From Rhizobium sp. BK602 (GTDB taxonomy: Bacteria > Pseudomonadota > Alphaproteobacteria > Rhizobiales > Rhizobiaceae), in the NCBI RefSeq assembly GCF_014195095.1, contig NZ_JACIBC010000002.1:124001-188000 (forward strand): a stretch of DNA of 64,000 bases. The letters are read 5' to 3'. Under the pieces are notes generated by a model, which saw nothing but the letters and a program-made list of their open reading frames with translations, searched no databases and was not told the origin of the DNA. A program made the translations under genes and the position numbers. Below are positions 2,826-34,323 of the stretch, piece by piece (position 1 is the first letter of the stretch; each line of letters starts with the position of its first letter).

Positions 2826-2846
2826 CTAGGGGAGCTGCCTTGCGTG
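2826..2846 (-). promoter_or_regulatory. Flagellar-operon motif upstream of motA
   Basis: On the minus strand this reads CACGCAAG, nine bases, then CTAG. The same arrangement with identical 9-base spacing occurs upstream of flgB, flgE, the FliH-like gene, flhA and flgF. Its position 37 bases before the motA start suits a promoter or activator site. The role is inferred from recurrence only. Confidence 0.5.
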
Positions 2847-2892
2847 AGGCTGTTCGGCATGCGCTTTCGCAGGCGTTTCGACGTGTCAGCTT

Positions 2893-2913
2893 CGCACAAG
2901 CCAATGCCGGCAC
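2893..2913 (+). promoter_or_regulatory. Flagellar-operon motif upstream of flgF
   Basis: CGCACAAG, nine bases, then GCAC. This is the weakest of the six copies in its downstream half, but it faces flgF and lies in the motA-flgF divergent region. The bases before it resemble those before the flgE copy (a shared CAGCTTC). About 98 bases separate it from the flgF start. Confidence 0.35.
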
Positions 2914-2925
2914 AGTAACGGGTAA

Positions 2926-2939
2926 GGGCATCCATGCCC
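2926..2939. repeat. Inverted repeat in the motA-flgF divergent promoter region
   Basis: GGGCAT-CC-ATGCCC, a perfect 6-2-6 palindrome, lies between the two divergent flagellar operons. It could be an operator for a dimeric regulator such as VisNR or Rem, but nothing in the sequence proves this. Confidence 0.3.
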
Positions 2940-3011
2940 CGCTAACGAAATGTAGGAGCGCCGGCGGCGTTTCCTTTCCCGTTATTCTCCAATGTCCGGA
3001 GGGCGTTGAAA

Positions 3012-3746
3012 ATGCAGTCTGGTATCTATGTGGCGCTGTCGTCCCAGATGGCGCTTGAGCGGCGCTTGACGACGATCGCCGACAATATGGCCAATGTGAA
3101 CACCACGGGCTTCCGCGGCACCGAGGTCAAGTTCAATCAGGTGCTCAGCAATACCGAAAACAAGCTCAACGCCAAGGTGGCCTTCGTCTCGCAGGGCAAC
3201 GACTATCTTTCCACGGATAATGGCGAGCTGCAGAACACCGGTAACCTCTTCGACTTCGCCGTCAAGGGTGATGCCTGGTTCGGCCTCAACACGCCGGCCG
3301 GCCTGGTGCTGACGCGCGACGGTCGCTTCACCATGACCGACAGCGGCGCGCTGGTCTCGGCCCGCGGCTATCCGGTGCTCGATCCCGGCGGCGCGCCGAT
3401 CCAGCTCGATCCGTCCGGCGGTGCACCCACCGTCTCCTCGAACGGCACGATTGCCCAGAACGGCAAGCAGGTCGGCCAGATCGGCCTCTACAGCTCCGAC
3501 GTCACCAAGGGCTTCCTGCGCTATGACAACAGCGGCGTCCTGCCGACCGACACGCCGCAGCCGGTCGTCGACCGCTCGAGCATCGGGATCGCCCAGGGCT
3601 ATCTCGAAAACTCCAATGTCAACGGCATGCGGGCAATGACCGAGCTCATCGAGGTCAGCCGCGCCTTCGACAATATCTCGACGCTCACCAACAGCAGCGA
3701 AGGCACGCTTTCGGACGCGATCAAGACCCTTGGCGGCAGCCAGTAA
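3012..3746 (+). CDS. flgF: FlgF, proximal rod protein
   Basis: 244 residues. The N-terminus MQSGIYVALSSQMALERRL and the rod signature DNMANVNTTGFRG near residue 30 are typical of the FlgE/F/G family, as is the C-terminal YLENSNVNGMRAMTELIEVS. FlgF is part of the periplasmic rod. The ATG at 3012 is preferred over an in-frame TTG at 3006 because GGAGGG at 2998-3003 is eight bases before the ATG and would abut the TTG. It opens the rightward rod/ring/export arm, 12 bases before fliI. Confidence 0.95.
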   Translation: MQSGIYVALSSQMALERRLTTIADNMANVNTTGFRGTEVKFNQVLSNTENKLNAKVAFVSQGNDYLSTDNGELQNTGNLFDFAVKGDAWFGLNTPAGLVLTRDGRFTMTDSGALVSARGYPVLDPGGAPIQLDPSGGAPTVSSNGTIAQNGKQVGQIGLYSSDVTKGFLRYDNSGVLPTDTPQPVVDRSSIGIAQGYLENSNVNGMRAMTELIEVSRAFDNISTLTNSSEGTLSDAIKTLGGSQ

Positions 3747-3758
3747 GAGGGGCGCATC

Positions 3759-32639: not shown

Positions 32640-32666
32640 GATGGAATGACCAGGAAGGATGCATGA

Positions 32667-33014
32667 ATGTATCAGTTCTCATATGCGGAAGTCATGCAGG
32701 ATGCAGTGGCCGACGCCAAGGAGCGAGAACGGCAAGTTCTGGACCGGTCGATAGCTCTGCTCGCTGCCGCCCGTGACAAGGAGAAATACGGCCGCGAGGC
32801 CATCGAGGCGCTGTTCTATACGAGGCGCGTCTGGATGAGCTTCATCGAGGACCTGAAAAGTCCGGAAAACCAGCTGAACGTCGAACTGCGCGCCAATCTG
32901 ATCTCCATCGCAATCTGGATCTTGAAGGAATGCGACAGGATACGCCGGCGCCAGTCGGAAAATTATCAAGGCATCATCGATGTCACCACCATCATCAGGG
33001 ATGGACTTAAATGA
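32667..33014 (+). CDS. flaF: FlaF, flagellin synthesis regulator
   Basis: 115 residues, typical. YQFSYAEVMQDAVADAKERE and the helical LYTRRVWMSFIEDL-like stretch (ALFYTRRVWMSFIEDLKSPE) followed by LRANLISIAIWILKECDRIR match the alphaproteobacterial FlaF family. FlaF is needed for flagellin synthesis and secretion and acts opposite to FlbT. The ATG at 32667 follows AGGAAGGA. The stop overlaps the flbT start. Confidence 0.93.
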   Translation: MYQFSYAEVMQDAVADAKERERQVLDRSIALLAAARDKEKYGREAIEALFYTRRVWMSFIEDLKSPENQLNVELRANLISIAIWILKECDRIRRRQSENYQGIIDVTTIIRDGLK

Positions 33015-33460
33015 AAAGTACGCTTCGCATATCGCTTAAAGCCGGGGAAAAGATCTTCATCAACGGGGCCGTGCTGCGCGTTGACCGAAAGGTTGCCCTG
33101 GAATTCCTGAATGATGTGACGTTCCTGCTCGAGAACCACGTCCTCCAGCCGGAAGACGCGACGACGCCGCTGCGCCAGCTCTATTTCATCGCGCAGATGA
33201 TCCTCATCAATCCGGAAGGCAAGGAGCAGTCGACGGCGATGTTCCGCAAGTCGATCGTGATGCTCCTGTCCTGCTTCCGTCATGAGGAAGTGCTGGCTGA
33301 ACTGAAGCGCATCGACGGCCTCGTCGCCACCGGCCGCGCCTTCGACGCGCTGAAGGCGATCCGCGGACTCTATCCGATTGAGGACAATATCCTCAACAGC
33401 CAGGAAATGCCGGCGGCGACCATCGAGCAGATTCGCAGGGAGATCGCACCGTGGCGGTAG
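33011..33460 (+). CDS. flbT: FlbT, post-transcriptional regulator of flagellin
   Basis: 149 residues, typical. STLRISLKAGEKIFINGAVL, VALEFLNDVTFLLENHVLQP and TPLRQLYFIAQMILINPEGK are FlbT family blocks. In Caulobacter FlbT binds the flagellin mRNA leader and promotes its decay until the hook is finished; rhizobial homologues can act positively. The shared flagellin leader elements in this window are possible targets. It overlaps flaF by four bases and flgD by ten. Confidence 0.94.
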   Translation: MKSTLRISLKAGEKIFINGAVLRVDRKVALEFLNDVTFLLENHVLQPEDATTPLRQLYFIAQMILINPEGKEQSTAMFRKSIVMLLSCFRHEEVLAELKRIDGLVATGRAFDALKAIRGLYPIEDNILNSQEMPAATIEQIRREIAPWR

Positions 33461-33921
33461 ATGCAGTCACCAGCAGCACCAGCACGTCTTCGACCAGCGC
33501 GTCTACTACGGCGGCGAAGAGTGCAACGATCAACTACAACGACTTCCTCCAGCTTCTCATCGCGCAGATGAAGACGCAGGATCCGACCGATCCCATGGAC
33601 GCCAGCGAGCAGATTTCGCAGCTCGCCAGCTTCTCCCAGGTCGAGCAGCAGATCCAGACCAATTCGCATCTGGAAACGGTGCTGCAGAACCAGTGGATTT
33701 CGCAGGCGTCCGATTATATCGGCAAGGAGATCATGAGTGCCGACGGCACGGTCACCGGCACGATCAAGGAGATAACCGTCTATTCGGACGGTATCATCGC
33801 CGAGACGGAAGGTGGGGACAAGGTGCTGCTGCAGGCGGGTGTCACCGTCGCACCGGCCGGCACGACGATTGATACGACGACGACGTCGAGCGATACTACC
33901 ACCAGCGATTCGACCGAATAG
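33451..33921 (+). CDS. flgD: FlgD, hook-cap scaffolding protein
   Basis: 156 residues. After a Ser/Thr-rich start, NYNDFLQLLIAQMKTQDPTD and MDASEQISQLASFSQVEQQI are the FlgD signature. The protein is short compared with E. coli FlgD (231) and lacks most of the C-terminal Ig/tudor-like region. FlgD caps the growing hook. The start is a GTG at 33451 with GGGAG eight bases upstream, giving a 10-base overlap with flbT. Confidence 0.93.
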   Translation: MAVDAVTSSTSTSSTSASTTAAKSATINYNDFLQLLIAQMKTQDPTDPMDASEQISQLASFSQVEQQIQTNSHLETVLQNQWISQASDYIGKEIMSADGTVTGTIKEITVYSDGIIAETEGGDKVLLQAGVTVAPAGTTIDTTTTSSDTTTSDSTE

Positions 33922-33979
33922 CACCGATATGACGGCAGCTCATGAGGAGCTGCCGAACCAGACCAGAGGATGACGGGCC

Positions 33980-34246
33980 ATGAACGAAGCCGATGCATTG
34001 GATATCTTCCAGGCGGCGATCTGGACGGTCCTCGTCGCCTCCGGCCCGGCCGTTCTCGCCGCGATGCTCGTCGGTCTGGTGATCGCCCTGATCCAGGCGC
34101 TGACCCAGGTGCAGGAAGCGACATTGACCTTTGTGCCGAAGATCGTCGCCGTCATGGTGACGGTCGGCGTCACGGCACCTTTCGTCGGCTCGCAGATATC
34201 CATCTTCACCAATCTGGTCTTTTCGCGCATCCAGTCGGGCTTCTGA
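33980..34246 (+). CDS. fliQ: FliQ, flagellar export gate protein
   Basis: 88 residues, two membrane helices (AIWTVLVASGPAVLAAMLVG and VPKIVAVMVTVGVTAPFVG) and the conserved ALIQALTQVQEATLTFVPK between them. It is part of the FliP5Q4R1 export gate. It lies 58 bases after flgD and 144 bases before flhA. Confidence 0.96.
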   Translation: MNEADALDIFQAAIWTVLVASGPAVLAAMLVGLVIALIQALTQVQEATLTFVPKIVAVMVTVGVTAPFVGSQISIFTNLVFSRIQSGF

Positions 34247-34302
34247 GCCTGCGGCCGGCAGCCGGAAAGACTTTGTGCTCCCGGCTCGCTGAAGGCCATT
34301 CT

Positions 34303-34323
34303 CGCGCAAGCTTCGCCTTTTAC
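34303..34323 (+). promoter_or_regulatory. Flagellar-operon motif upstream of flhA
   Basis: CGCGCAAG, nine bases, then TTAC, 67 bases before the flhA start. It suggests a separate promoter for flhA-fliR and the genes after them. Confidence 0.4.

What the first reader, a model, noticed from the sequence alone, without database searches (positions are those of the whole stretch)
2826..34323. A 21-bp motif with fixed spacing lies upstream of six flagellar transcription units
Read in the direction of the gene: motA CACGCAAG-N9-CTAG (2826-2846, minus), flgB CACGCAAG-N9-CTAG (5762-5782), flgE CACGCAAG-N9-CTAC (28757-28777), FliH-like/motB CGCACAAG-N9-CTAC (21992-22012), flhA CGCGCAAG-N9-TTAC (34303-34323), flgF CGCACAAG-N9-GCAC (2893-2913). 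The gap is exactly nine bases in all six, and four copies lie 30-70 bases before a start codon. This is seen directly. That it is a promoter or the site of a flagellar activator (Rem, VisNR or an unusual sigma) is inference. The flagellin genes lack it, which would separate early/middle from late genes.
Basis: partly seen in the sequence, partly recalled or inferred. Interest (0 to 1): 0.75.

Follow-up and report, generated by a model that had tools for sequence, protein, structure and literature searches.

The report
Shared control switch for flagellum genes
In this Rhizobium genome many of the gene groups that build the base, motor and hook of the swimming tail share one short DNA sequence with rigid spacing, which likely is the docking site where the regulator protein Rem would switch them on; the same sequence sits before many of the same genes in related bacteria that carry Rem.

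Summary
Five of the six copies match exactly (0.09 expected by chance); the sixth (flgF) only in part. Footprinting in relatives shows the real element: an 11-bp direct repeat (CAGCYTC-N4-AAGNYTC) followed at fixed distance by a -10-like hexamer (TAnnnT; NAnnnT before some genes). Profiles trained on relatives' sites recover all six sites plus three more in the window (fliN, fliK, flgJ), fliF and a flhB-internal site just outside, and an unlinked unknown gene. Sites picked by the repeat alone have TA at the same offset in 279 of 279 upstreams. The flhB-internal copy has frozen synonymous codons. In 199 genomes of the order the element exceeds its reversed control clearly only where Rem is found (108 vs 6; 64 vs 46 without Rem), and no site stands before flagellar genes of the Rem-less polar clusters examined. 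Best reading: the Rem-dependent class II flagellar promoter. Rem binding and transcription starts are not shown here. No printed Rem site was found, but the primary Rem paper is not held.

The parts
906..935 (-).
   Evidence: refined profile 28.2; GCAAG-YTT...GAAT at the same offset 22-48 nt after fliM in 13 of 13 fetched relatives, repeat score above 7 in 12 of 13; downstream gene is FliMN_C
2823..2852 (-). Predicted Rem-box promoter of motA(-fliM...), -10 position TAGTTG
   Evidence: exact; profile 24.0 with motA and own genome outside the training set; 8 of 8 relatives at 58-60 nt before motA
2887..2916 (+). Predicted Rem-box of flgF(-fliI), divergent from motA, weak -10 CACAGT
5756..5785 (+). 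Predicted Rem-box promoter of flgB operon, -10 TAGGGT
   Evidence: profile 31.2; 18 of 30 family loci above 12 with flgB left out of training
14354..14383 (-). Candidate only: weaker site about 100 nt before a likely start (14274) of a TPR + GT41 glycosyltransferase gene beside the flagellins
   Evidence: refined profile 17.8, above 20 shuffles (max 15.5); GT41 by Pfam; not tested in relatives
21986..22015 (+). Predicted Rem-box promoter of fliH-like-motB-motC unit, -10 TACGGT
   Evidence: profile 35.3; 79 of 79 relatives with the group left out
25216..25245 (+).
   Evidence: profile 21.4, group never in training; 31 of 31 relatives at 245-247 nt before fliK (49 further loci dropped because the fliK N-terminus did not align)
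27861..28532 (+). rem, 223-aa OmpR/PhoB-type regulator without phospho-acceptor Asp; itself without the site upstream
   Evidence: Trans_reg_C; source names Rem; 0 of 80 rem upstreams with the site; phospho slot E50
28751..28780 (+). Predicted Rem-box promoter of flgE-flgK-flgL-flaF-flbT-flgD, -10 TACTCT
   Evidence: profile 31.8; 52 of 60 with the group left out
34297..34326 (+). Predicted Rem-box promoter of flhA-fliR, -10 position TACTGA
   Evidence: profile 31.9; 77 of 79 with the group left out
37633..37662 (+).
   Evidence: repeat (score above 4) in 75 of 76 rem loci with flgJ upstream available; refined profile 22.7; first profile gave only 5.0

Best explanation
The motif is a 30-bp element, an 11-bp direct repeat (CAGCYTC-N4-AAGNYTC) with a -10-like hexamer (TAnnnT) at fixed distance, that is likely bound by the OmpR/PhoB-type regulator Rem to switch on the class II (basal body, hook, motor, export) flagellar units. 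Inferred mechanism: two Rem molecules would bind the tandem repeat head to tail over the -35 region, where the consensus shows no TTGACA-like hexamer 16-18 bp before the -10 (columns), and recruit the housekeeping RNA polymerase to the -10, as PhoB-type class II activators do (recalled). Rem lacks the phospho-acceptor aspartate (Glu, Gln or Arg in 43 of 43 homologues), so its amount rather than phosphorylation would set output. Shown here: the sequence, its conservation, its fixed spacing, its gene set, constraint on it inside flhB coding DNA, and its co-occurrence with Rem. Not shown: Rem binding, transcription starts, sigma factor use.
For: Leave-one-promoter-out, score above 12: flgE 52/60, flhA 77/79, fliH-like 79/79, flgB 18/30, fliK 31/31; rem, flgL, flaF, flgD, fliR, motC, motB 0 of 56-80 each, flaA 1/79; shuffled copies of the five site-bearing groups 2 of 279. 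Spacing: sites chosen by the repeat alone have TA at +18 in all 279 upstreams of these five groups, 228 distinct; over 11 promoter groups A at +19 in 264 of 265 distinct sites (the orf43 group there was picked with the full profile). Repeat period: 11 bp best of shifts 7-14. Constraint at DNA level: flhB-internal site in 30/30 loci, synonymous-codon entropy 0.175 against 0.656 elsewhere, the lowest window of the gene. Where flgE lies on another contig it has its own copy at -52 (3 of 3 examined). Rem link: matches 108 vs 6 control in 47 Rem+ genomes, 64 vs 46 in 152 Rem-; clusters with rem have sites, Rem-less polar clusters of five same-genus genomes have none before flagellar genes. Rem recognition helix nearly invariant. 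A published passage says Rem directly activates class II genes and is aspartate-less (PMC9812332).
Against: No binding or start-site data. The only published motif I found for a Rem relative, TGTGGGCA for FtcR of Brucella melitensis (PMC9456535, passages), is different and is not enriched here (1 in the window, 1.6 expected). rem itself lacks the site. Co-occurrence with Rem is confounded with having flagella and with phylogeny; 7 of the 47 Rem+ genomes (G037, G253, G273, G277, G288, G305, G347) gave no match at one mismatch. In the two-cluster genomes the flhA and flgE sites score only 12.0-12.1, no more than the polar background (12.1-12.5); only fla (29-31) and fliF (14-15) stand out. At up to 3 mismatches the own genome shows no excess (110 vs 100 control). 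The last T of the -10 is rare in flhA (1/60), motA (1/8) and the orphan gene (1/22). In A. fabrum, two 10-bp deletions in the flaD-ATU0568 gap left motility normal (PMC9812332 section 13); whether they touch the site is not said.
Confidence: 0.82

Rival explanations
1. The element is a promoter for an alternative sigma factor: the repeat would be an unusual -35 and CTAS part of its -10, with no activator.
For: Two blocks at rigid spacing and near-constant distance to start codons look like a two-part promoter.
Against: The upstream block resembles a tandem 11-bp repeat, the -10 is TAnnnT-like with A at its second position in 264 of 265, FliA is absent above cut-off, and matches follow Rem. Other sigma factors were not surveyed one by one.
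Confidence: 0.08
2. VisNR (LuxR-type) rather than Rem binds the element directly.
For: VisNR sits at the top of the cascade (PMC8429497 passages), and two LuxR-type genes lie next to fliF in this genome.
Against: Convincing VisR only in 2 of 15 Rem+ genomes, weak long matches in 3 more, yet the element stands before flagellar genes in most of the distant ones; a review passage says B. diazoefficiens and A. caulinodans lack visNR but have rem homologues. LuxR sites are usually palindromes (recalled).
Confidence: 0.03
3. Another OmpR-family or CtrA-like regulator shared by flagellated Hyphomicrobiales binds it, and the Rem correlation is phylogenetic.
For: Co-occurrence cannot by itself name the protein; CtrA also controls flagellar genes in alphaproteobacteria (PMC6180460, search listing and start of abstract).
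Against: Same-genus contrast: clusters with Rem have sites, polar clusters (three of the five genomes Rem-less) do not, although CtrA would be common to all (recalled). The consensus holds no TTAA-N7-TTAA (recalled CtrA site).
Confidence: 0.07

Closest known systems
Rem / class II flagellar promoters of Sinorhizobium meliloti (Rotter et al. 2006; not held; known here through passages of PMC9812332 and PMC8429497)
   Same: Same regulator and the same kind of genes (basal body, motor, hook); flagellins are class III.
   Different: The cis element (11-bp repeat plus fixed -10), its further members (fliK, flgJ, fliN, flhB-internal, an unlinked orphan) and its order-wide spread were not found in the papers I could search.
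PhoB/PmrA-type class II activated promoters (Pho box, PmrA box; recalled)
   Same: Two 11-bp direct repeats over the -35 region, a -10 at fixed distance, OmpR/PhoB-type activator.
   Different: Half-site AAGCYTC, 2 bp from the end of the second 11-bp unit to the -10, and a regulator without a phospho-acceptor aspartate.
FtcR regulon of Brucella melitensis (PMC9456535, passages)
   Same: FtcR is reported to bind upstream of fliF; close Rem homologues carry the FtcR name in one source.
   Different: Its reported ChIP-seq motif TGTGGGCA bears no resemblance to this element.
LafR of Bradyrhizobium diazoefficiens lateral flagella (PMC8429497, passages)
   Same: Rem homologue reported to act without phosphorylation on lateral, not polar, flagellar genes; the two-cluster genomes here show credible sites only in the rem-bearing cluster.
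   Different: In those genomes flagellin genes carry the site; in this Rhizobium they do not.

Membership tests
OmpR/PhoB-type class II activated sigma70 promoter | Direct repeat of 10-11 bp | tested here: met
   Period 11 best of shifts 7-14 over 11 promoter groups, modest in size (0.31 bits per column; next -0.53 at 10)
OmpR/PhoB-type class II activated sigma70 promoter | -10 element at fixed distance downstream of the repeat | tested here: met
   TA at +18 in 279/279 upstreams, 228 distinct; A19 in 264/265
OmpR/PhoB-type class II activated sigma70 promoter | Transcription starts just downstream of the -10 and depends on the activator | not testable with these tools
   No RNA data; the S. 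meliloti TSS tables (PMC3616915) are in supplements not available here
Rem regulon (class II flagellar genes) | Regulator Rem encoded in the genome | tested here: met
   window 27861-28532, 95-98% identical to Rem of the nearest named Rhizobium loci
Rem regulon (class II flagellar genes) | Element confined to genomes or clusters with Rem | tested here: met
   108 vs 6 control in 47 Rem+; 64 vs 46 in 152 Rem-; polar clusters negative
Rem regulon (class II flagellar genes) | Rem binds the element | not testable with these tools
   needs gel shift, footprint or ChIP
FliA (sigma28) promoter | FliA encoded in the genome | tested here: not met
   no match over the TIGR02479 cut-off in G000; best 108 bits against 189.6
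VisNR-bound promoter | VisNR present wherever the element is | tested here: not met
   convincing VisR in 2 of 15 Rem+ genomes, weak long matches in 3 more
FtcR motif (TGTGGGCA) | Contains or lies beside TGTGGGCA | tested here: not met
   1 match in the window, at 41157, 1.6 expected

The most novel reading that the evidence does not exclude
One aspartate-less orphan regulator, Rem, reads one rigid 11-bp-repeat promoter code that has defined the early flagellar gene set since the ancestor of the Hyphomicrobiales. The code is strong enough to be kept inside protein-coding DNA (flhB, motC), to stand before flgE even where flgE lies on another contig, and to have shed the flagellin genes on the way to Rhizobium; it also marks an unlinked, unannotated 153-aa protein (C1:980965-981423) as an unknown motility factor.
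Probability: 0.6. Interest if true: 0.75.

Novelty: new member of a known kind. Interest (0 to 1): 0.62.

Why it matters
Rem has been known since 2006 as the switch for early flagellar genes in rhizobia, but I found no DNA site for it in the papers searched. A defined site would make the direct Rem regulon readable from sequence in Hyphomicrobiales genomes, show how flagellin left direct Rem control in Rhizobium while staying in it elsewhere, question the published FtcR motif, and hand over a short list of new candidate members (orf43-like gene, fliN, fliK, flgJ and an unlinked unknown gene).

Tried and rejected
Two-mismatch matches in the window: noise. Ten-bp repeat period, my first idea: rejected, 11 bp fits better. 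Sites at C14:5617 (19.6) and C2:975121 (16.2): left as chance; no flagellar gene seen next to them and no conservation test. Longest-ORF calls downstream of the flhB-internal site first suggested an antisense transcript to visR; set aside when a 146-aa ORF just after flhB was found and aligned in 30 of 30 loci, starting 8-29 nt after flhB in 29 and giving 212 in L297. FtcR's TGTGGGCA: not enriched. Literature on a printed Rem site: searches and the passages or sections seen gave none; Rotter 2006 is not held; a 2021 paper on the Rem antagonist MirA (recalled) did not appear in the listings; a site may be in print in either. Whole-genome profile scan of G000: not run; unlinked hits come from pattern searches with up to 3 mismatches, whose listing was cut and whose total (110) barely exceeds control (100), so more unlinked members may exist.

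Rows dropped: flgE absent between rem and flgK in 20 of 80 loci; fliK 49, flgD 23, motC 15, motB 2 loci dropped for unaligned starts; L287 lacks motA in its stretch. Of 20 fetched rem neighbourhoods (19 genomes) five show no flagellar gene besides rem (G184, G291, G238, G199b, G312) and two only fliI or fliI-flgF (G319, G269). Part of the flgB training sites came from loci fetched by the motif pattern; the counts use only loci fetched by protein. All site selection goes back to a profile first seeded with the window's five sites. Order-wide counts were copied by hand from the printed table and added.
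Full report
Setting. The window is G000:C2:124001-188000 of a 6.33-Mb genome. Its Rem is 95-98% identical to Rem of Rhizobium freirei, R. lusitanum, R. tropici and similar strains, so it is a Rhizobium of that group. Gene names were checked by NCBIfam or Pfam for fliM, motA, flgF, flgB, motB, fliK, flgE, flhA, flgJ, rem and for fliN, fliF, flhB and two LuxR-type genes in the visN/visR place; the remaining flagellar names follow gene order and my own knowledge of the rhizobial cluster. 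The FliH-like gene (22183-22815) has no family hit above cut-off.

The observation. Five match CRCRCAAG-N9-YTAS exactly against 0.09 expected. The flgF copy is two mismatches off, at which level chance alone gives more matches than are seen.

The real element. I took 80 rem loci of named records (Rhizobium, Sinorhizobium/Ensifer, Xaviernesmea, Pararhizobium, Gellertiella, Ciceribacter, Mycoplana and unnamed Rhizobiales isolates) and 30 flgB loci of unnamed family members, extracted upstream regions by protein alignment, and refined a profile seeded with the window's five sites. Retrained on relatives only (150 distinct sites of flhA, fliH-like, flgE and flgB), it scores the window's motB unit 35.3, flhA 31.9, flgE 31.8, flgB 31.2, motA 24.0 and a new site before fliK 21.4, then drops to 11.2; twelve order-2 Markov copies peak at 4.2-12.4. 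Leaving each promoter out of its own training gives, above 12, 52/60 (flgE), 77/79 (flhA), 79/79 (fliH-like), 18/30 (flgB) and 31/31 (fliK), and 0 for rem, flgL, flaF, flgD, fliR, motC and motB (56-80 each), 1/79 for flaA. The flgK figure (17/79) reflects the 20 loci where flgE is missing between rem and flgK.

Anatomy. Reading in the gene's direction the consensus is CA-N2-YT-C-RCRC-AAG-NYY-N6-YTAS-NNT. Column similarity peaks at a shift of 11 bp, though modestly: (C/A)AGCYTC-N4-AAGNYTC. RCRC is the spacer; it is kept at all distinct flgE, flhA, fliH-like, flgB, motA, p151 and orf43 sites but at 1 of 26 flgJ, 5 of 20 fliK and 2 of 12 fliN sites. Sites chosen by the repeat alone carry TA exactly 18 positions on in 279 of 279 upstreams of five groups, 228 of them distinct; TAnnnT in full in 154 of 228. 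In flgJ, fliN and most flgF sites the T is replaced but the A stays: A at +19 in 264 of 265 distinct sites over eleven groups (the orf43 group was picked with the full profile and a fixed core, so it is not independent there). T-A-N-N-N-T is the -10 signature (recalled); the step from there to a -10 element is inference.

Gene set. In the window the refined profile finds nine sites at 21-29 (motB unit, flgE, fliN, flhA, fliK, motA, flgB, flgJ, flgF), next 17.8, with 20 shuffles peaking at 15.5; in the 20 kb upstream it finds a flhB-internal site 29.3 and fliF 28.1, next 16.7. That profile was trained on relatives' sites of all these genes except fliF, never on this genome's. flgJ: repeat in 75 of 76 loci. 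fliN: same place in 13 of 13. motA: 8 of 8; flgF: 6 of 8. One unlinked site scores 22.2 before a 153-aa ORF at C1:980965-981423 (p151) with no Pfam family. The protein is in 37 of 37 Rhizobium genomes; of the 30 loci examined, 29 have CGCRCAAG and one GGCGCAAG upstream, 29 of them at 55-66 nt and this genome's at 163; profile score above 10 in 27 of 30. Its 120 listed homologues are hypothetical, uncharacterized or unnamed, except two labelled histidine kinase and one DUF4446 by single sources.

Constraint on DNA. The flhB-internal site occurs in 30 of 30 family loci, 88-106 nt before the end of the flhB alignment, ahead of a 146-aa ORF. Over its eight informative codons synonymous entropy is 0.175 against 0.656 in the other 130, the lowest window in the gene; TTT, CAA, GTC and GAT are used by 30 of 30. 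Protein conservation alone would not freeze synonymous positions.

A natural transplant. In three R. tropici-group genomes examined, flgE lies on another contig and has its own site 52 nt upstream with different filler (15.9-21.3), while in the 20 loci without flgE a site still stands upstream of flgK (four such loci printed).

Who binds. Rem is an OmpR/PhoB-type protein. Its phospho slot, read from the alignment to RegX3, is Glu 33, Gln 7, Arg 3 of 43 homologues, never Asp, and E-x-V-x-E-x-H-x-SKLRK of the recognition helix is fixed or nearly so. Passages of PMC9812332 call Rem aspartate-less and directly responsible for class II activation. In 199 genomes of the order, 47 have Rem at E 1e-30; with one mismatch allowed the extended pattern gives 108 matches against 6 for its reversal in those, and 64 against 46 in the 152 others (Fisher odds ratio 12.9, which ignores relatedness). 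Outside the family the 40 Rem+ genomes give 78 against 4. Seven Rem+ genomes give none. Two genomes of one genus (f35 g143: G296, G189) carry a cluster with rem and another without; the rem cluster has sites before fla (29.0, 31.2) and fliF (14.4, 15.4), and marginal ones before flhA (12.0, 12.0) and flgE (12.1, G296 only); the polar clusters of these two and of three Rem-less genomes of the genus (218 kb) have three hits above 10 (12.1-12.5), none before a flagellar gene. Passages on LafR (PMC8429497) describe just such a lateral-only Rem homologue in Bradyrhizobium; that these genomes are Bradyrhizobium is my guess.

Distant relatives (profile from Rhizobiaceae, threshold 12), counted over genomes that show the gene in the fetched stretch: flgB 7 of 8, flhA 6 of 7, fliF 7 of 12, flgE 5 of 9, motA 4 of 6, flagellin 8 of 10. 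So flagellin is in the set in much of the order and out of it in this Rhizobium and its nearer relatives (1 of 79 flaA upstreams; other flagellin copies of the relatives were not tested).

Against. No binding or RNA data. The published FtcR motif differs and is not enriched. rem has no site of its own. The last T of the -10 is rare in flhA, motA and the orphan. Two deletions in the A. fabrum flaD-ATU0568 gap did not hurt motility; their position relative to the site is not given in the text.

Verdict. A real, widely conserved promoter-like element, most likely the Rem-dependent class II flagellar promoter. The kind (OmpR-type activated promoter) is known; the site, its gene set and its history were not found in the papers I could search, with the caveat that the primary Rem paper is not held.

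Noticed in passing
L039-L049, L053, L055, L056, L058, L060, L061, L063, L067, L068; G003:C3:328604, G019:C11:183714, G009:C32:391463: In 20 of 80 rem loci (R. tropici/lusitanum group) flgE is missing between rem and flgK; in three genomes checked it sits on another contig, only 63-65% identical to this genome's FlgE, with its own promoter-like site.
   Followed up: partly
G000:C1:980965-981423 (L151): Unannotated 153-aa protein with an N-terminal hydrophobic stretch, present in 37 of 37 Rhizobium genomes, with the element upstream: candidate unknown motility gene.
   Followed up: partly
12337-14358 (-), 16779-19504 (-): Between the flagellin genes lie a TPR + GT41 (O-GlcNAc-transferase-like) glycosyltransferase, a TPR protein and a pyridoxal-dependent decarboxylase: possible flagellin modification genes; the GT41 gene has a weak candidate site upstream.
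   Followed up: no
14521-21942: Four flagellin genes with two non-flagellar genes inserted among them; none has the element upstream.
   Followed up: partly
C2:121573-122010 (L168:17573-18010 -): 146-aa ORF between flhB and visR (orf43-like by position) with no Pfam family, its promoter apparently embedded in flhB.
   Followed up: partly
G289, G332, G302, G284, G230, G296, G189, G199: Flagellin genes of distant Hyphomicrobiales carry the element 146-198 nt upstream, in several with a GANNNT-type -10.
   Followed up: partly
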